Source of the DNA: an uncultured bacterium
Lineage (GTDB): Bacteria > Verrucomicrobiota > Kiritimatiellia > RFP12 > UBA1067
Length of the DNA: 51,395 bases
NCBI GenBank assembly: GCA_902775595.1
Contig: CACYNF010000017.1
Location: 1-51,395 of the forward strand
Direction: 5' to 3'
This document shows positions 12,705-41,237 of the stretch, piece after piece. How positions within the stretch are numbered: the first letter of the stretch is position 1; each line of letters begins with the position of its first letter. The translations under genes were made by a program, and so were the position numbers. The notes beneath the pieces are model-generated. The model searched no databases and was not told where the DNA came from. It was given only the letters and a program-made list of their open reading frames with translations.

Positions 12705-12754
12705 TTTGTCTCTACCCGTCAATAGGGATTTTAGACCCCCGCCCTTGCACCCGC

Positions 12755-12816
12755 TTTTGGGGACAGACCCCACGATAGCCAATAAAATCAAGGGTTCGAA
12801 AGGGTCTGTCCCCAAA
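12755..12816. repeat. Dispersed repeat family C, copy 3 (perfect terminal inverted repeats)
   Basis: A 62-bp element with arms TTTGGGGACAGACCC and GGGTCTGTCCCCAAA, which pair perfectly, around the same core (GATAGCCAATAAAATCAAG, GGGTTCGAA) as the copies at 211 and 894. It lies between the ABC ATPase gene (ending at 12852) and the promoter of the DUF234 ATPase. As transcribed RNA it could fold as a hairpin and end transcription, but no T run follows it. Confidence 0.85.
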
Positions 12817-12851: not shown

Positions 12852-13817
12852 TCACTTCCCGAGATACGCCTCTTCGAGAGAGCGGCCCGGCGTGACGGCA
12901 ATGACGCCAAAGGGAACGAGCCGCGGCAAAAGCGCCGCGTTCACGGTCTCCACCGCAAGCCCCTCTCCAAACTCGGCGACAAGCGTCTTCTCACTTGGCA
13001 GGGGCGCGCTTGGTAGGGACGGCACTCCGTGCCGTCCGCGGGCGTCTTGGAAAGACGCCCCTACCGAGAACCTCACTCCCGGGCATTCTTGCTCAATCGC
13101 TGCGAGGTCGCTCGGCAACTCCTTTAGCGCGTAGACGATCCGTCCGCTGTCGGACGTGATCGCGCGCAGCGTCTCCATCCGCTCCACTTTTCCGTCCGCG
13201 ACAAAAGCGACGTGCGTGCAAAGCTTTTCGATGTCGTCGAGCTGGTGCGAAGAGACGACGAGCGTCGTTTTGCCCCTGAGCGAAAGAAGGAACGAGCGAA
13301 GACGCTCGGCCTCGACCGGGTCGAGCCCGCTCAGCGGCTCGTCGAGCATCACGACTTCCGGGTGGCCGAGAAACGCCTGCGCCACCATGACGCGCTTTCG
13401 CATTCCGTGCGAGAGCGAGCGAATGGACGCGTTCGCCTTGTCCGCCAGGTTCATGACTTCGATGAGCTCGTCTGCCGACTTCGCGGCATCCTTCCTTGTC
13501 ATCCCCTGAAGCCGCGCATATCCAATGAGCAAAGACCTGACACGCCCTTCGTTCGGGAGATCGGAGTCCTGCGGCAGTATCGTGAACCGCCCGCCGTGGC
13601 GCCGCGCGTCGAACGGACCTCTGCCGAGGATGCTCACTTCTCCGGCGTCGGGAATAACGAAGCCGGCGACCGTCATCATCCATGTCGTCTTGCCCGCGCC
13701 GTTTCGCCCGACGAGTCCCGTGATGGACCCCGAGGGAACGGCGAGCGTGAAGCCGTTGAGCGCCGCGTGGCGGCCATACTTCTTTACGAGAGCGCGGGTG
13801 ATTATCGCTTCGTTCAT
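12852..13817 (-). CDS. ABC transporter ATP-binding protein (with in-frame repeat peptide)
   Basis: 321 residues from the ATG at 13817, which has GGAGG just upstream and overlaps the permease stop. Walker A GRNGAGKT (about 37-44), signature LSHGMRKR, Walker B VVMLDEPLSGLDP and the switch His in SSHQLDD are all present, so it is a complete ABC-2-type exporter ATPase. The C-terminal extension contains a foreign peptide VGASFQDARGRHGVPSLPS encoded by a palindromic element (13011-13066); the same peptide pattern occurs in the lactonase at 17612-18805. The insertion lies outside the nucleotide-binding core and leaves the frame open to EEAYLGK. Paired with the permease at 13814-14710; substrate unknown. 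Confidence 0.9.
   Translation of the reverse strand: MNEAIITRALVKKYGRHAALNGFTLAVPSGSITGLVGRNGAGKTTWMMTVAGFVIPDAGEVSILGRGPFDARRHGGRFTILPQDSDLPNEGRVRSLLIGYARLQGMTRKDAAKSADELIEVMNLADKANASIRSLSHGMRKRVMVAQAFLGHPEVVMLDEPLSGLDPVEAERLRSFLLSLRGKTTLVVSSHQLDDIEKLCTHVAFVADGKVERMETLRAITSDSGRIVYALKELPSDLAAIEQECPGVRFSVGASFQDARGRHGVPSLPSAPLPSEKTLVAEFGEGLAVETVNAALLPRLVPFGVIAVTPGRSLEEAYLGK
13011..13066. repeat. Palindromic family A element, in frame in the ABC ATPase gene
   Basis: Outer arms GGTAGGG and CCCTACC enclose two hairpins: GACGGCAC-TCC-GTGCCGTC and GGCGTCTT-GG-AAAGACGCC, giving a three-way-junction fold. Other full copies: 16051, 17163, 17981, 18345, 21763. Here it is translated on the minus strand without breaking the frame. 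Confidence 0.9.
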
Positions 13818-15561: not shown

Positions 15562-17379
15562 TCATTGCTTCCGCTCCAGGAATCTTCCCGTTCTATCGGC
15601 GGAGAACTTTCCGTCAGCATACGACACCGCGCCGTTCACCACGACGGCCTTCACTCCGCTCGAGAACTGATGCGGCTCGACGTACGTCGCCTTCGACGCA
15701 AACTCGCCTTCCTTCCAGATCGCGAGATCGGCAAACGCACCCTTCTCGATTACGCCGCGATGCGCGATGCCGAAGCGACGCGCGGGAACGGATGTCATGC
15801 GCGCAATCGCCTCTTCGCGCGAAACGCCGAGCGCCATGACGCGGCGGTAGAACTCGGGCATCGTGCCGTATGCGCGAGGATGCGGATGGTCCGCGCCGAG
15901 CGGTCCCCACGGCGCACGAAGAGACGCGTCGCTCCCAGGAACAATCCACGGACGAGAAAGAATTTTGTCGAGGTTGTCTTCGCTCATCCCAAAGAAGAAC
16001 GCGCCAGTCTTGCAGCCGTCAAGCTCTAGGATGCGGCAGATGAGCTCTCCTGGTAGGGACGCGTCTCTGACGCGTCCGCGGTCGCCTCGTATCCCCCGAG
16101 CGAAGCGAGCCGCGTCAGCGGTCGCTAGAGGGGTGAGAGGCGCCCCTACCAAATGCGGCCCCACAATGTCGCCCATCGCGCATTGTGAACACAAAATTTC
16201 AGCAACTGTCTTGCCGCTGAGTGGCTTTGTCGCCTCGTGCCACGTGCCCCCGATCATCACCGTGTCCGACGCGTTGATCTCGGCGACAATCTTCGCCCTC
16301 GTCGCGGGATCTGCGAGACGCGCCATCTCCGCGGGCGCGGCGCCTTCCTGCGCCCAGTCGGGAAGGACAATGTCGAGATCTGTTCCCGCCGCGCAGAACG
16401 GATAGCGGTCGCTCCCGAGAAGAAGCCCGTCGCCAATCGCGTTCTCGATTTTTTCAAGCACTGCGTCGATCTTGTGCCAATTGCGCTTGCCGCTCGTCTT
16501 GAGGTGCGAGATCTCGGCGCGGATTCCCGTCGCCTTCACGAGGTCGATCACTTCGTCAATCGCCTCGAGAATCCTGTCGCCCTCCGAGCGCATGTGCGTC
16601 GCATAGAATCCGCCGCGCTCCGCTGCGACCTTTGCAAGCGCGACGACTTCTTCGGGCGTCGAGTATTTCCCCGGCTGGTAGATGAGCCCCGTCGTGAGGC
16701 CCCAGCCGCCGGCGTCGAGGGACTCGGCGAGAAGTCGCTGCATCTCCTTTAGCTCGTCCGGCGTCGCCGCGCGTCCGGCATAGCCGACGACGGATGAGCG
16801 GAGAGTGTTGTGGCCGACAAACTGAATCGTGTTTATCGCGGGCTTCGCCGCTTCGAGTACTGTGCGGTACTCAGCGAGCGAGCGCCACGTCAGACGCTCG
16901 CCGAGAAGCGCCGCCCAGTCGCTGGAGAGACGCGCTTCGCCGTAGCGCGGCGCAACCGAGCCGCCGCACTGGCCGTTGATTTCGGTCGTCACGCCCTGTG
17001 AGATTTTCGACGGCGCGTCTGGCTCGAGGACGAGGTATGCGTCGGAGTGCGCGTGGGCGTCGATGAAGCCGGGGCTTACGATGCAGCCGGACGCGTCGAT
17101 GGTCGCAGCTTTGCTATTTCGAACAGTGGGGTCTGACCCCATGGTTGCCGTAGGGCAACTCGTGGTAGGGACGGCACTCACCCCTCTAGCGACCGCTGAC
17201 GCGGCTCGCTTCGCTCGGGGGATACGTGCCGTCCGCGGACGCGTTGGAAACGCGTCCCTACCATGTGACGCCGTAGGAATGACATCTACGATCCTGTCGC
17301 CGTCAATGACAACGTCGCCATGGAACCCTGGCTTCCCCGAGCCATCAACAACCAAACCATTCTGTATTATCAGCGTCAT
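15562..17379 (-). CDS. N-acyl-D-amino-acid deacylase-like amidohydrolase with two in-frame repeat insertions
   Basis: 605 residues; relatives of the D-aminoacylase/dihydroorotase-like amidohydrolase superfamily are usually ~480-530. The family would remove acyl groups from N-acyl-D-amino acids. Seen: N-terminal beta-sandwich start (IIQNGLVVDGSGKPG), the metal-binding SPGFIDAHAHSD, GVTTEINGQCGGS, an internal H-x-R region ATHMRSEGD, and the C-terminal AFADLAIW. The excess length comes from two foreign blocks: about residues 39-72 (17163-17263) and about 410-443 (16051-16151), each encoded by a family A palindrome with a 48-bp family B element inside it. Both keep the frame. The first lies in the N-terminal beta domain, the second in a loop of the barrel. 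Whether the enzyme is active is untested. Confidence 0.85.
   Translation of the reverse strand: MTLIIQNGLVVDGSGKPGFHGDVVIDGDRIVDVIPTASHGRDAFPTRPRTARIPRAKRAASAVARGVSAVPTTSCPTATMGSDPTVRNSKAATIDASGCIVSPGFIDAHAHSDAYLVLEPDAPSKISQGVTTEINGQCGGSVAPRYGEARLSSDWAALLGERLTWRSLAEYRTVLEAAKPAINTIQFVGHNTLRSSVVGYAGRAATPDELKEMQRLLAESLDAGGWGLTTGLIYQPGKYSTPEEVVALAKVAAERGGFYATHMRSEGDRILEAIDEVIDLVKATGIRAEISHLKTSGKRNWHKIDAVLEKIENAIGDGLLLGSDRYPFCAAGTDLDIVLPDWAQEGAAPAEMARLADPATRAKIVAEINASDTVMIGGTWHEATKPLSGKTVAEILCSQCAMGDIVGPHLVGAPLTPLATADAARFARGIRGDRGRVRDASLPGELICRILELDGCKTGAFFFGMSEDNLDKILSRPWIVPGSDASLRAPWGPLGADHPHPRAYGTMPEFYRRVMALGVSREEAIARMTSVPARRFGIAHRGVIEKGAFADLAIWKEGEFASKATYVEPHQFSSGVKAVVVNGAVSYADGKFSADRTGRFLERKQ
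16051..16151. repeat. Family A element with nested family B copy, in frame in the amidohydrolase gene
   Basis: TGGTAGGG ... CCCTACCA outer arms; hairpin 1 is GACGCGTC-TCT-GACGCGTC; the second hairpin (GGTCGCCTC/GAGGCGCC) has a 48-bp family B element (16089-16136) in its loop. The product peptide includes LTPLATADAARFARGIRG. Confidence 0.85.
16089..16136. repeat. Family B 48-bp repeat nested in family A hairpin 2
   Basis: Unit GTATCCCCCGAGCGAAGCG ... CGGTCGCTAGAGGGGTGA, exactly 16 codons long. Copies at 17178-17225 (opposite orientation relative to the gene) and about 40352-40399 in mnmG. Open in both frames in which it is used. Confidence 0.8.
17163..17263. repeat. Family A element with nested family B copy, in frame near the amidohydrolase N-terminus
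   Basis: Outer arms TGGTAGGG and CCCTACCA; hairpin 1 GGCAC/GTGCC carries family B (17178-17225) in its loop; hairpin 2 is GGACGCGTT-GG-AAACGCGTCC. It encodes the RIPRAKRAASAVARGVS peptide of the protein. Confidence 0.85.
17178..17225. repeat. Family B 48-bp repeat nested in family A hairpin 1
   Basis: Reverse orientation of the 16089-16136 copy and essentially identical to it. Its ends fall exactly in the 3-nt loop position of the GGCAC/GTGCC hairpin. Confidence 0.8.
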
Positions 17380-17611
17380 TATAATTTATTCGTCTGGGGT
17401 ATTGATTTTTAACGCAGAGTCGCAGAGACGCAGAGTAGTATTGTAGCTCTTTGAAGTTTTCTCCGTATCTATCTTTCTCTGCGCACTTTGCGTCTCTCGG
17501 CACTCGCTTCGCTCGGCTTGGCTCGCTACGAATCGCGAGCCCCGCTTGCGCGGCGGTTACGCGTCTCTGCGTTAAAATATTTCGTGGTTATCCACATTTC
17601 CCTATTAACTC
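17380..17611. repeat. Gene-free spacer with family E fragments
   Basis: Contains TAACGCAGAGTCGCAGAG (about 17410-17428), a reverse-oriented CGTCTCTGCGTTAAAAT (about 17560-17577) and, between them, a GC-rich CTCGCTTCGCTCGGCTTGGC stretch related to families B and D. No reading frame with protein character and no tRNA were seen. Confidence 0.6.
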
Positions 17612-18805
17612 TCACTCTTCGAACTTGAAACACAGCGGGCGCCAGCAGGGAATCGGCTCGCCGACTGGCTTAAGCTCGCACTTCTCGCGGTCGAAGGCGT
17701 ATACCTGAATCTCGTTCGACATCTTGTGGCCGACGACCATGAACTTCTCGCCCGGCATCAGCTCAAAGTCTCGCGGGAACTTGCCCGTCAGCTTCGCGAC
17801 ATTCTTCATCGTGAGCGTGCCGTCTTCGTTCACGGCGAAGAACGCGATCGAGTCGTGCCCGCGGTTTGACGCCATCAGTATCTTCCCGTCCGCCGTCGAC
17901 TTTATTGCCGCGGCCTTCGTCTCGGTCTCCTTAAGCGCACATCCCTCTGGCAGCATCGACCACTTGCCGATGCGAGTGAATGGTAGGGACGGCTCTCCGA
18001 GCCGTCCGCGGGCGTCTTGGAAAGACGCCCCTACCAAATTTGGCGTCCCCTTGGCTACCGCATAGCTCGTAACCGTCGACGACAGCTCATTCACCACAAA
18101 GAGGAACTTCCCGTCATTCGAGAAAATCGCGTGGCGCGGGCCGTCGCCAGGATCGGCCTTCAGCGTGACAACTGGCTTATCAAGTCCACCCGGCTTCTTG
18201 TAGTCGTAGAAGTTCACCCTGTCGCAGCCAAGGTCGCACACACCCATAAGCTTACCGTCGGGCGTGTAGAACGTCTGGTGCGCGAACGCCTTTTGCTGGC
18301 GGTCCTTGCGCGGACCAACCGCATCGTTAGGCAGCGCGGCGCTCTGGTAGGGGCGTGTTTCCAACACGCCCGCGGACGCCTGGGGATAGGCGTCCCTACC
18401 AAATGTAGCACCCCGCTCGTCCAACGCCATCACTCCGTAAATCCCCGACCAGTAAACCGCAACCGACATGACGCTCTCGTCTGGCGAAAGCGCGACGTGG
18501 CACGGCGTCTCGCACGGAAGTTCGGCGAGCTTCGTCATCTTGCCGATGCGGTGATTCTCGACGTCGAACTTGACAATCGCGCCGTGCGACTTGTTGTCGA
18601 CCTTCTCCGCGACGACGGAGTAGAGAGTCTTGCCGTCCTTGGAGAGCTGGAAGTACGTCGTTCCCTCGCAGCCGTTCACCGACTGGACGATTTTCGCCGC
18701 CCCAGTCTCTGTGTCGCACTCGAGAACCTTTAGCGCGTCCTTGTCGGGCGAGCCCGTGTTGCATCCGACGATGCAGTAGACTGTGGCGGCGATCATTGTG
18801 TTCAT
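17612..18805 (-). CDS. Lactonase-type seven-bladed beta-propeller with two in-frame repeat peptides
   Basis: 397 residues. Repeated blade motifs (FQLSKDGKTLYSV, VALSPDESVMSVA, AIFSNDGKFLFVVNE, KSTADGKILMASNRGHDS, FELMPGEKFMVVGHK) mark the lactonase/6-phosphogluconolactonase-like propeller family, which in known members hydrolyses sugar lactones such as 6-phosphogluconolactone. Two inserts interrupt the blades: GATFGRDAYPQASAGVLE (18345-18401) and LVGASFQDARGRLGEPSLP (17981-18036), both from family A elements, both in frame. The start overlaps the upstream SGNH-hydrolase stop... in fact the ATG at 18805 overlaps the TGA of the 18802-20271 gene; the Met at residue 4 is an alternative. Substrate unproven. 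Confidence 0.85.
   Translation of the reverse strand: MNTMIAATVYCIVGCNTGSPDKDALKVLECDTETGAAKIVQSVNGCEGTTYFQLSKDGKTLYSVVAEKVDNKSHGAIVKFDVENHRIGKMTKLAELPCETPCHVALSPDESVMSVAVYWSGIYGVMALDERGATFGRDAYPQASAGVLETRPYQSAALPNDAVGPRKDRQQKAFAHQTFYTPDGKLMGVCDLGCDRVNFYDYKKPGGLDKPVVTLKADPGDGPRHAIFSNDGKFLFVVNELSSTVTSYAVAKGTPNLVGASFQDARGRLGEPSLPFTRIGKWSMLPEGCALKETETKAAAIKSTADGKILMASNRGHDSIAFFAVNEDGTLTMKNVAKLTGKFPRDFELMPGEKFMVVGHKMSNEIQVYAFDREKCELKPVGEPIPCWRPLCFKFEE
17981..18036. repeat. Family A element, in frame in the lactonase gene (copy 1)
   Basis: 56 bp: TGGTAGGG, hairpin GACGGCTC-TCC-GAGCCGTC, CCGCG, hairpin GGCGTCTT-GG-AAAGACGCC, CCTACCA. The second hairpin is identical to that of the ABC ATPase copy at 13011. 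Confidence 0.9.
18345..18401. repeat. Family A element, in frame in the lactonase gene (copy 2)
   Basis: 57 bp: TGGTAGGG, hairpin GCGTGTTT-CC-AACACGC, CGCG, hairpin GACGCC-TGGGGATA-GGCGTC, CCTACCA. It is read in the opposite orientation to the 17981 copy relative to the hairpin order, giving a different peptide. Confidence 0.85.
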
Positions 18806-21762: not shown

Positions 21763-21818
21763 TGGTAGGGGCGCGCCTCCGTCGCGCCCGCGGACGCGTT
21801 GGAAACGCGTCCCTACCA
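21763..21818. repeat. Family A element, intergenic copy
   Basis: TGGTAGGG, hairpin GCGCGCC-TCC-GTCGCGC, CCGC, hairpin GGACGCGTT-GG-AAACGCGTCC, CTACCA, between the UPF0237 and UPF0210 genes. The only full copy of the family outside a gene in this window. Confidence 0.9.
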
Positions 21819-25255: not shown

Positions 25256-26043
25256 CAGCTGCGGCTGCGCTCCATCTCGCTCTGGCACTCCATGCACGTC
25301 AGGACGAACGGCTGGTTGAGGAGACGGGGCTTGCGTATCAGCTGCCCGCAGACGGTGCATACTCCGTACGTCCCGTCGTCGATGCGGTGAAGCGCCTCTT
25401 CGATCTGCTGGATCGTGCGGTTGATGTTGCCCATCTGCCCGAGCGCCTGGAGGCGCAGCGTCTGGTTCGTGCCGTCGCCGCCGTCTGACTCATGGTCGTC
25501 GGACTCGTTGAAGCCGGTCGCCTTTATCGCGTCGACGCCCGAGAGCGCCGCGGCGCGGGCCTCGATGAGGCGCTTGCGGAAATCCTTGAGATCCGCCGCG
25601 GGGAACTTCACGGTGGACTTGCCCTGCGCGCGCGTCGTCGGACGGCGCGAAAGCTTTATCCCGTTGTCCGTGCGGTCCTGCTCAGCCTTCGCCGCCGAGC
25701 GCTTCATTTCCTCCGCGATCGACAGCGCAAACTCCACGGCCTTCGCCGTATCGATCGCCTCGACCTCGGGAGCTACCGGCTTCTCGGCGACGACGGGACG
25801 GCGCGTGATGCGCGGAGGAACGCGCTTGATCTCGGCCTTTGGCTTCTTCGCCGCAACCTTCTTCGCTGCCGGCTTCTTCGCCGCAACCTTCTTCGCCGCG
25901 GGCTTCTTGGCTACGGGCTTCTTCGCCGCAACCTTCTTCGCCGCCGGCTTCTTTGCCACGGGCTTCTTCGCCGCCGGCTTCTTTGCCGCCGGCTTCTTTG
26001 CCGCAGGTTTCTTGGCCTTCGAATTCTTGATGCTGACTCCCAT
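25255..26043 (-). CDS. DksA/TraR-type zinc-finger protein with histone-H1-like Lys/Ala/Pro tail
   Basis: 262 residues. Residues about 10-67 are a run of KKPAA/KKVAA pentapeptide repeats of the kind found in histone H1-like DNA-binding tails. The C-terminal ~110 residues are a DksA/TraR-like module: a helical hairpin (DLKDFRKRLIEARAAALSGV ... IEEALHRIDDGTYG) and the four-Cys zinc finger CTVCGQLI ... CMEC. DksA-type proteins enter the RNA polymerase secondary channel and adjust promoter activity with ppGpp. The tail would tether such a factor to DNA or RNA. AGGAGG lies before the ATG and an extended -10 box at 26089-26097. It is followed by lspA and miaA. Confidence 0.85.
   Translation of the reverse strand: MGVSIKNSKAKKPAAKKPAAKKPAAKKPVAKKPAAKKVAAKKPVAKKPAAKKVAAKKPAAKKVAAKKPKAEIKRVPPRITRRPVVAEKPVAPEVEAIDTAKAVEFALSIAEEMKRSAAKAEQDRTDNGIKLSRRPTTRAQGKSTVKFPAADLKDFRKRLIEARAAALSGVDAIKATGFNESDDHESDGGDGTNQTLRLQALGQMGNINRTIQQIEEALHRIDDGTYGVCTVCGQLIRKPRLLNQPFVLTCMECQSEMERSRS
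25843..26016. repeat. Tandem pentacodon repeat coding for KKPAA
   Basis: 15-nt units (GCCGCCGGCTTCTTT and variants on the plus strand), about eleven copies. Third positions vary little, so recent expansion and contraction by slippage or unequal exchange is likely; the copy number may differ between strains. Confidence 0.85.
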
Positions 26044-26088
26044 GAAATTGCCTCCTCTCTAAATATTCTTCTGCTTGACGACTCTCTT

Positions 26089-39125: not shown

Positions 39126-41237
39126 TCAATGTCTTCCTCGCTTTATTATTACGGCCAGTACCGCGACATCTGCAGGATTGACGCCAGAAATCTTGGCTGC
39201 CTGTGCCAGTGTCTCTGGTTTCCACCGCTTCAGCTTCTCACGGCTCTCAAATCTCACTGCCGTGCACTTGTCATAATCAAGCCACTTGGGTATTTTGATA
39301 GCTTCATCAATCTTTGCTTTTTCAGCTGCTTTTCGCTCCTGTTCGATGTATGGAGCATATTGTCGCATAATCTCTCTTTCGCGTTTTATCTCATCCTCTG
39401 AAAACCATTTTTCTATGCCCTCTCCATAATTTAGTGTTTGTTGTTCATCGCTTTTCTCATTTAGATAGTCCCATACAATTTTTACCGCAGCCAAATAGTC
39501 TTCGCTTTGTATTCCTACCCTCTTTGCTGGCTCCAGTAGTCTAAACCTTGCATTGTCCTGTCGCAGAATCAACCGCCGCTCTGCTCTGCTCGTGAACATT
39601 CTATACGGCTCGTCAGTGCCCTTCGTAACGAGATCGTCAATAAGCACGCCGATATAGGCATCCTGTCTACTAAGGACAAGCGGCTCTTCGCCTTTCACCT
39701 TTAGCGCGGCGTTAATTCCGGCGATAATCCCCTGCGCGGCTGCTTCTTCATAGCCGGTTGTGCCGTTTATCTGACCTGCAAAGTATAGACAGTCAATTCG
39801 CTTTGATTCAAGCGTGTGCTTCAGTTCCCGGGAATCTATTCCGTCATATTCTATGGCATATGCATAAGCGAGAAATTCCGCCTTTTCAAGACCAGGTACC
39901 GATCTCACCATTTTTTCCTGTACATCACGCGGAAGACTGCATGAAAGTCCATTTGGATAGATGATTTCTCCTTTTAGGTCTTCTGGCTCCAGCATTACAT
40001 GATGCTGCTTTGCATCCGCAAACCTGACGATTTTATCCTCAATTGATGGGCAATATCGCACGCCTGTGCCCCTTATTGCACCACCGTATAGGGCTGATAC
40101 ACCCAGATTTTCCCGTATGATCCTGTGTGTTTCTTCCGTTGTATGCGTCATCCAGCAGGGAAACTCTGGTAATTGTTCCACGTGGAACATTTCTTTATTT
40201 TCAGATTTTAACGCAGAGTCGCGTAGCCGCACCCCCCCTGTTAGGACATCCGCTTTGCGGACGACCTGCGGTCGGGGGATATCCTTGTGGGTGGGCGCGA
40301 CCCATTGGGAAGCGACCAAGCCGAGCGGAGCGAGTGCCGAGAGTCGCAGAGGTATCACCCGAGCGAAGCGAGCCGCGCAAGCGGTCGCTAGAGGTGTGCG
40401 CAAAGGATGTTGGGATGTATAGTTGGGATAAGAAAATGTTCCACGTGGAACACTATTTAGATTGATCTCTGCGTCCTCAGCGTCTTTGCGTCTCTGCGTT
40501 AATAAGAAAGAATCTTCATAATGTTCCACGTGGAACATTGGGCGGGGATTCTCGCCATCCTGTCTCTTGCATACGGAGAAGTTGCAGCTTGATGCCTTTA
40601 GGCGAGGTGGAGTGCCGGTTTTCAGGCGGATGAGGGTGAATCCAAGCTTTTCGAGACATTCGGAAAGCAAATTGACGGCTGGACGGCCATCTCCGCCTGA
40701 TTCCTGGCACTCTTTTCCAATCCAAATCCTGCCTCTTAAAGTTGTCCCAGCAGTCAAGACGACGGTTTTAGCCACTATTGAGCCATGATGCTCTGTAATG
40801 ATTCCAGTGGCCTTGATATTGCCGCCATCAGAAGCTCCAGGGCCGCTTGTGGTGATCCCTATGGCAGCATCTTCAAGAACGGTCAGGTTTGCTTGGCTAT
40901 TGATTACTTGCTGCATCCGTAGGGAGTATTCGGCTTTTGCACACTGTGTTCGTGTTGCCTGGACAGCCGGACCGCGGCTTGAATTCAATGTCTTAGATTG
41001 AAGGGCAGTTGCATCGGCGTTTTTCCCCATCTCTCCACCAAGGGCATCAAGTTCGTAGACGAGGTGGCTCTTTGCAAGCCCTCCGATCGAGGGGTTGCAT
41101 GGCATCATGGCTATGCGGTCTTTCCTGGCCGTGACGAGAAGGGTATTGAGCCCCATGCGGGCTGACGCAAGGGCTGCTTCGGCCCCGGCATGACCACCGC
41201 CAACGACAATAACATCACTGTTGAACGATCCATTCAT
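39126..41237 (-). CDS. mnmG: tRNA uridine modification enzyme MnmG (GidA) with ~120-residue in-frame insertion
   Basis: 703 residues against ~620-630 in the family. The FAD-binding [19 protein letters not shown], the [19 protein letters not shown] motif, the TGTPPR block and the C-terminal helical domain that contacts MnmE are present. With MnmE it adds the aminomethyl-type group at C5 of wobble U34. Residues about 234-355 are foreign: they begin and end with MFHVEH/MFHVEQ (parS-like sites read in frame) and hold [10 protein letters not shown] (family E), [19 protein letters not shown] (family D) and [14 protein letters not shown] (family B). The insert sits in the FAD-domain insertion between the KTGTPPR region and [15 protein letters not shown], a natural loop. 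The frame is open throughout, so a functional enzyme with a long loop is likely. Confidence 0.95.
40174..40189. promoter_or_regulatory. parS-like site 1 (inside mnmG)
   Basis: TGTTCCACGTGGAACA, a perfect 16-bp palindrome that fits the ParB-binding consensus TGTTnCACGTGnAACA. Translated as part of MFHVEQ in MnmG. Confidence 0.85.
40283..40342. repeat. Dispersed repeat family D, copy 2, in frame in mnmG
   Basis: Almost identical to 121-180. In MnmG it encodes [19 protein letters not shown]; the same frame is open in the copy at the left end of the window. Confidence 0.85.
40352..40399. repeat. Family B 48-bp repeat in frame in mnmG
   Basis: GTATCACCCGAGCGAAGCG ... GCGGTCGCTAGAGGTG, the same unit as at 16089-16136 and 17178-17225, a few bases changed. 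Encodes [14 protein letters not shown] in the same frame as the 16089 copy. Confidence 0.8.
40437..40452. promoter_or_regulatory. parS-like site 2 (inside mnmG)
   Basis: TGTTCCACGTGGAACA, identical to sites 1 and 3, read in a different codon phase as SVPRGTF in MnmG. Confidence 0.85.
40467..40502. repeat. Family E repeat in frame in mnmG
   Basis: Complement of TTAACGCAGAGACGCAAAG followed by ACGCTGAGGACGCAGAG, the widespread AACGCAGAG-type intergenic repeat, here translated as [12 protein letters not shown]. Shorter pieces occur at 40206, 15468, 17410, 17560 and 22560. Confidence 0.8.
40522..40537. promoter_or_regulatory. parS-like site 3 (inside mnmG)
   Basis: TGTTCCACGTGGAACA, identical to sites 1 and 2, translated as MFHVEH at the upstream edge of the MnmG insertion. 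Confidence 0.85.

What the first reader, a model, noticed from the sequence alone, without database searches (positions are those of the whole stretch)
16051..17263. Family B repeat nested in the hairpin loops of family A
A 48-bp (16-codon) family B element sits in the loop of hairpin 2 in the copy at 16051 and in the loop of hairpin 1, reversed, in the copy at 17163. A third copy is in mnmG. Loop targeting of cruciform or single-stranded hairpin DNA by a transposase-like enzyme would explain it. The length is a multiple of three and the sequence is open in two frames on one strand or the other, which keeps host proteins intact.
Basis: seen in the sequence. Interest (0 to 1): 0.8.

Follow-up and report, generated by a model that had tools for sequence, protein, structure and literature searches.

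The report
Tiny mobile DNA nested in repeats
In gut bacteria of the Kiritimatiellae, a foldable piece of DNA only about 46 bases long moves by itself into other repeats, often inside working genes; it leaves the reading frame intact and duplicates no target bases. The two copies noticed here sit at the tips of hairpin repeats because such a tip is one of several places it enters.

Summary
B (core TATCCCCC...GGGGT, 45 bp) sits exactly at a hairpin tip of two A elements in an amidohydrolase gene, and again in mnmG. The "two different loops" are one: A is nearly palindromic, so the 17163 copy is the 16051 architecture inverted. B moves independently of A. Relative G074 has the same A element in the same gene without B, differing by exactly 45 bp with no duplication, and the three A+B composites of this genome have different arms, each identical to an empty A elsewhere. 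Across the genus I collected 141 B copies. Of 31 distinct-context filled/empty comparisons, nearly all show a clean insertion at C-N-G, one base swapped for B's own A/G, net +45 or +48. B folds, with compensatory changes. Of copies with coding flanks, 35/35 have lengths divisible by three and 32 are in frame without a stop. Hairpin-tip targeting as the rule fails: rejoined junctions lie in apical loops no more often than control sites (12/123 versus 10%). B also sits in GGGGAAC tandem repeats and other families. No Y1/RAYT or IS110 gene is linked to B. Most likely B is a trans-mobilised, frame-neutral miniature element, akin to REP/RPE/SDR repeats. The enzyme is unknown.

The parts
16051..16151 (+). 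A+B composite 1: quasi-palindromic A element (TGGTAGGG-hairpin1-CCGCGG-hairpin2-CCCTACCA) with B in the tip of hairpin 2
   Evidence: orthologue without B in G074
16090..16134 (+). B core, 45 bp (TATCCCCCGAGCGAAGCGAGCCGCGTCAGCGGTCGCTAGAGGGGT), inserted G^GA
   Evidence: exact 45-bp difference to the empty orthologous site
17163..17263 (-). A+B composite 2, same architecture as composite 1 when reverse-complemented
17180..17224 (-). B core, identical to that in composite 1
   Evidence: its arms match 100% the empty A at 13011
15562..17379 (-). host gene of both composites, amidohydrolase (Pfam Amidohydro_3), 605 aa, open through both inserts
40353..40397 (+). third B core, inside mnmG
40231..40281 (-). 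fourth, divergent B core (51 nt), nested in a D element inside mnmG
40283..40341 (-). D element (CTCGGCACTCGC...), a second nested repeat family, with B adjoining
39126..41237 (-). mnmG (gidA), 703 aa, open through an insert of about 370 bp made of nested repeats
17497..17560 (+). D element inside a C element (AACGCAGAG...CTCTGCGTT, about 17407-17578)
   Evidence: the C-type frame continues on both sides
13011..13065 (+). empty A element whose hairpin 1 has exactly the arms of composite 2
17981..18036 (+). empty A element
18345..18401 (+). empty A element
21763..21818 (+). empty A element

Best explanation
B is a non-autonomous mobile element of about 46 nt, specific to one genus of gut Kiritimatiellae as far as searched. 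SHOWN: its ends are precise (A/G-TATC...GGGGT); it enters C-N-G sites without duplicating the target, one target base giving way to B's own purine, so the net gain is 45 or 48 nt; its outer stem and inner hairpin are kept by paired changes; it is nested in several other repeat families; in A elements it always lands at the hairpin tip, which carries CTC-G^GA-G; copies in genes keep the frame and bring no stop codon. INFERRED: it is moved in trans by an enzyme acting on B folded as single-stranded DNA (absence of target duplication and small hairpins are what HuH/Y1-type chemistry would leave), and selection in genes keeps the frame-neutral lengths. A hairpin tips are hit because they are a high-copy, tolerated source of the short target, not because every hairpin loop is a target.
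For: Orthologous filled/empty site, exactly 45 bp. 31 distinct-context filled/empty comparisons, ungapped apart from B; target base G 18, A 7, T 5, C 1, always followed by G, replaced by G or A (one of the 31 is a tandem B duplication, L188, not a clean case). Three composites in this genome whose arms match three different empty A elements at 100% over 28-31 bp. A different 48-nt B subfamily at the same tip position in G074. Covariation in B: outer stem pairs CG, AT, GC at 99-100% paired. Found in 21 of the genomes searched as relatives, all of the same genus, and in none of 23 same-order genomes. Frame: coding-flanked 35/35 divisible by three versus 70/93 otherwise, Fisher p 0.0005; 32/35 in frame, none of these with a stop.
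Against: No enzyme is linked: 3 Y1_Tnp genes in this genome and 52 Y1 loci in the genus carry other flanking repeats, and the partial correlation of B with Y1 counts given genome size is only 0.22. IS110 (PF02371) is absent from several B-rich genomes. A one-base replacement is not a known signature of IS200/IS605. At the key site the phylogeny of G000, G030 and G074 is unclear, so exact loss in G074 is not excluded. Genomes are draft MAGs. Pair counts include related copies, and the coding call uses a simple codon model trained on this window.
Confidence: 0.7

Rival explanations
1. Hairpin-tip targeting: an enzyme recognises extruded or single-stranded hairpins and inserts B into the loop whatever its sequence.
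For: All A+B composites examined (window 2, C64, G074 C34 and C76) and three A+D composites (C14, C51, C5) have the guest within about 2 nt of the tip. The E-type repeats also hold B in an apical loop.
Against: Genus-wide, 12/123 junctions lie in apical loops of >=6 bp versus 10% of control sites. B sits in (GGGGAAC)n, C and F repeats without a hairpin at the junction. In A the tip is also where C-G-G-A occurs, so sequence suffices.
Confidence: 0.15
2. A-B composites travel as one fixed unit and spread together.
For: The two window composites share an identical B and the same orientation within A and lie 1 kb apart; duplication followed by arm change is possible for this pair.
Against: The same A without B at the orthologous site; arms differ and match different empty A elements; most B copies are outside A.
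Confidence: 0.08
3. Template switching during replication copies B between sites: hairpins stall the fork and short matches (GC...GC) guide the strand, without a dedicated transposase.
For: Flanks share short matches (G/C before, GCG after), one base is exchanged rather than duplicated, stems show compensated changes, and one orthologous composite is inverted between two species (60/71 identical inverted, 20/71 direct).
Against: Ends are the same in about 30 independent contexts, which free template switching would not give; strong genus restriction.
Confidence: 0.2
4. The nesting reflects survival only: B inserts anywhere with C-N-G, and insertions inside existing repeats are kept because those places already tolerate inserts.
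For: Host repeats lie in genes at tolerated spots; the same protein sites hold different repeats in different species.
Against: Does not by itself explain precise ends or the one-base swap. It is compatible with the best explanation and may account for much of the nesting.
Confidence: 0.35

Closest known systems
REP elements / REPINs moved by RAYT (TnpA-REP) transposases, GTAG-tagged families (PMC3733652, PMC3116915)
   Same: Family A has the GTAG tag next to a short-loop hairpin, inverted dimers, stems with alternative complementary residues, and intragenic copies; GTAG repeats are reported from the PVC superphylum, with the most intragenic ones in Opitutus terrae. B shares tiny size, hairpins, high copy number and lack of coding capacity.
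   Different: B has no GTAG or CGTC tag, replaces one target base, and is not next to a Y1 gene. Family A was not linked to a RAYT here either.
Insertion sequences that target REP sequences (IS621, ISPpu9, ISPpu10, ISPa11, ISRm22; PMC1525189)
   Same: A mobile DNA inserts specifically into REP palindromes, for ISRm22 at the palindrome axis.
   Different: Those are full insertion sequences with transposase genes; B is 46 nt without a gene, and IS110 genes are missing from several B-rich genomes.
Rickettsia palindromic elements (RPE), in-frame inserts in genes
   Same: Palindromic, in frame, in unrelated genes, present at some orthologous sites and absent at others.
   Different: RPE-1 is longer and RPE-4/6 are CGTC-tagged (PMC3733652); B lacks the tag and nests mainly inside other repeats.
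Small dispersed repeats (SDR) of Nostoc (cited in PMC3116915; details from memory)
   Same: Very small mobile repeats, found inside other repeats, mechanism unknown.
   Different: Different host phylum; SDR details were not read here, so the comparison is a lead only.

Membership tests
REP/REPIN moved by RAYT (tested for B) | GTAG (or CGTC) tetranucleotide at one end beside the stem-loop | tested here: not met
   B ends are A/G-TATC and GGGGT-G in nearly all of 141 copies
REP/REPIN moved by RAYT (tested for B) | a Y1 transposase gene flanked by the same repeat | tested here: not met
   52 Y1 loci, B only once, about 1.2 kb away, near the chance rate
REP/REPIN moved by RAYT (tested for B) | short palindromic, high copy, paired changes in stems | tested here: met
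GTAG-tagged REP dimers (tested for A) | GTAG tag, 6-9 bp stem, short loop, inverted dimer | tested here: met
   GGTAGGG...CCCTACC, stems Watson-Crick in 261 of 270 checked pairs, triloop TCC/GGA
GTAG-tagged REP dimers (tested for A) | association with a RAYT gene | tested here: inconclusive
   RAYTs here carry other repeats; no A dimer beside the seven Y1 loci with a GGTAGGG motif
Rickettsia palindromic elements | in-frame insertion in unrelated genes, absent from orthologues | tested here: met
Rickettsia palindromic elements | CGTC tag (RPE-4/6) at one end | tested here: not met
   B ends lack it; RPE sequences themselves were not aligned
IS200/IS605-derived miniature element | no target duplication, short sequence-specific target | tested here: met
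   C-N-G, no duplication
IS200/IS605-derived miniature element | ends shared with a full copy that encodes TnpA | tested here: not met
   none of 52 Y1 loci has B ends
IS110/IS1111-derived miniature element | IS110-type transposase in the carrying genomes | tested here: not met
   no PF02371 match in G000, G012, G030, G033 although B is common there

The most novel reading that the evidence does not exclude
B belongs to an undescribed class of mobile DNA of about 46 nt that exchanges one base of a C-N-G site for itself through an unidentified enzyme, is kept frame-neutral by selection, and lives as a parasite of other palindromic repeats, whose hairpins can in addition invert in place.
Probability: 0.35. 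Interest if true: 0.8.

Novelty: new variant of a known kind. Interest (0 to 1): 0.6.

Why it matters
How very small palindromic elements spread, sometimes in frame inside essential genes, has been open since the Rickettsia elements were described (my own knowledge). Here about 30 filled/empty pairs fix both ends to the base, the target (C-N-G), the one-base exchange and the folded form, which turns the question into a set of testable constraints on the enzyme. It also shows nesting of mobile repeats inside REP-like hairpins within working genes, and an in-place inversion of such a hairpin between species.

Tried and rejected
Chance repeat: rejected by E-values and covariation. Fixed A-B unit: rejected by the empty orthologous A and mixed arms. 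Loop targeting as the rule: rejected by the folding test against control sites; a simpler stem count had shown a weak excess, driven by A- and E-type repeats. RAYT linkage: 52 loci read, negative. Copy-number correlation with Y1: mostly genome size. IS110: absent from B-rich genomes. Presence outside the group: pattern hits in unrelated phyla (Proteobacteria, Streptomyces and others) were not confirmed by the B model; one hit in a Saccharofermentans MAG is probably mis-binned rumen DNA. One confirmed copy lies in an IMG/VR contig (L453), not followed. Rfam finds nothing in the window. Literature search for such repeats in Kiritimatiellae: none found in the held library.

Full report
What is there. 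The window is contig C17 of a 3.15-Mb draft genome. Family A is TGGTAGGG-hairpin-CCGCGG-hairpin-CCCTACCA, almost its own reverse complement. In 15 full-length copies, 30 hairpins, the nine pairs checked are Watson-Crick in 261 of 270 cells, and most positions show two to four pair types. Two A elements in one gene, an amidohydrolase, carry B. Once the minus-strand copy is turned round, B lies in the same loop, in the same orientation, at the same base in both.

B moves on its own. Orthologues of the host gene were found in 53 of 58 genomes of the genus. At the 16051 site G000 and G030 have A+B, while G074 has the same A without B; the difference is exactly 45 bp at CTCG^GAG with no duplicated base. 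At the 17163 site the relatives G030, G074 and G002 have a different repeat (AAGCCGCAAAGA...), and G002 carries a B inside that kind of repeat at the other site. These two stretches of the protein are therefore hot spots for repeat inserts. In this genome the three A+B composites have three different arms, each identical over 28-31 bp to an empty A elsewhere. In G074 another composite holds a clearly different 48-nt B at the same tip position.

The rule of insertion. 141 B copies were collected from the genus. Thirty-one distinct contexts could be compared, without gaps, with a homologous site lacking B (one search shows the alignments). All show the same ends, apart from one tandem B duplication (L188) that should be set aside. 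The target is N followed by G, usually preceded by C; the base N (G 18, A 7, T 5, C 1) is replaced by the purine that B brings, so typically 46 or 49 nt go in and one comes out. Hosts are A, C (AACGCAGAGGCGCAG), D, E (GGGGGCGCCAGAGCCCCC), F (GCGGCAGTTTGCGC), GGGGAAC tandem repeats, and unique DNA.

Is it the hairpin? Flanks were rejoined and folded with DNA energies: 12 of 123 junctions lie in an apical loop with a stem of at least 6 bp, against 148 of 1476 control R-G sites nearby. So loops are not a general target. A tips are a recurrent target, and all nested guests found in A are at or within about 2 nt of the tip, including three D elements. But the tip is also where the short motif occurs, so shape and sequence cannot be separated from these data.

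Structure and frame. In 103 distinct B cores the outer stem (CCCC/GGGG, with AT and GC replacements) is paired in 99-100% and hairpin 2 in 81-97% of copies. Core lengths are 45 (38 copies) and 48 (70 copies) of 141. Where both flanks score as coding, 35 of 35 cores are divisible by three, 32 are in frame and none of these has a stop; in other places 70 of 93 are divisible by three (Fisher p 0.0005). The coding call is a simple codon model trained on this window, and copies are related, so the p-value is indicative.

An in-place inversion. The C64 composite of this genome has an orthologue in G074 with conserved flanks and equal length, yet the hairpin is turned round: 60 of 71 bases match inverted and 20 of 71 direct. 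Both B copies share a hairpin-1 loop variant, so one insertion followed by inversion is more likely than two insertions. Three stem pairs changed on both sides meanwhile. G069 has no element there and G030 a different repeat.

The enzyme. This genome has three Y1_Tnp genes, and the genus many, but the ones read carry their own flanking repeats (GGGGACAGACCCC, GGCCTGAAGGGCCTCGCACCAAG, TTATTGATACAG) and not B. Y1 and B counts correlate (rho 0.62) mainly through genome size (partial 0.22). IS110-type genes are missing from G000, G012, G030 and G033 although B is common there. Mobilisation in trans by a single-strand transposase is the mechanism I find most likely for the lack of duplication and the folded ends, but it is inferred and the one-base exchange is unexplained by it.

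Place among known things. A fits the description of GTAG-tagged REP dimers reported from the PVC superphylum, including intragenic ones (PMC3733652). Insertion sequences that use REP palindromes as targets are known (PMC1525189). B resembles REP, RPE and SDR repeats in size and behaviour but fails the tag and the transposase linkage tests. I therefore call it a new variant of a known kind, with a real chance that its mechanism is new.

Noticed in passing
40174-40189, 40437-40452, 40522-40537: Three perfect copies of TGTTCCACGTGGAACA, the ParB-binding parS-type palindrome (my own knowledge), inside the repeat-derived insert of mnmG, read as FHVE in two of them; expected by chance 0.01 with up to 2 mismatches.
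   Followed up: partly
G000:C64:11574-11648 and G074:C76:3414-3487: Orthologous A(half)+B composite is inverted between two species, with compensated stem changes.
   Followed up: partly
17497-17560, 121-179, 40283-40341; G000 C14:8329, C51:3972, C5:47508: Family D (TCGGCACTCGC...GGTTAC), another nested repeat; three copies sit at A hairpin tips (CT^CTCC) with different arms.
   Followed up: partly
206-268, 888-950, 12750-12812: Repeats GGGGACAGACCCC...CCGTCCCC resemble the repeats that flank Y1 transposase genes in the genus.
   Followed up: no
G000:C5:47471-48898: Tandem array of A half-elements with a D inside one of them.
   Followed up: no
25813-26047: 15-bp tandem repeat coding region (CTTCTTCGCCGCAAC...), probably a lysine/alanine-rich histone-like tail on the minus strand.
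   Followed up: no
L453 5570-5620: A B copy in an IMG/VR viral contig (E 3e-10); could be a phage or a mis-called host contig.
   Followed up: no
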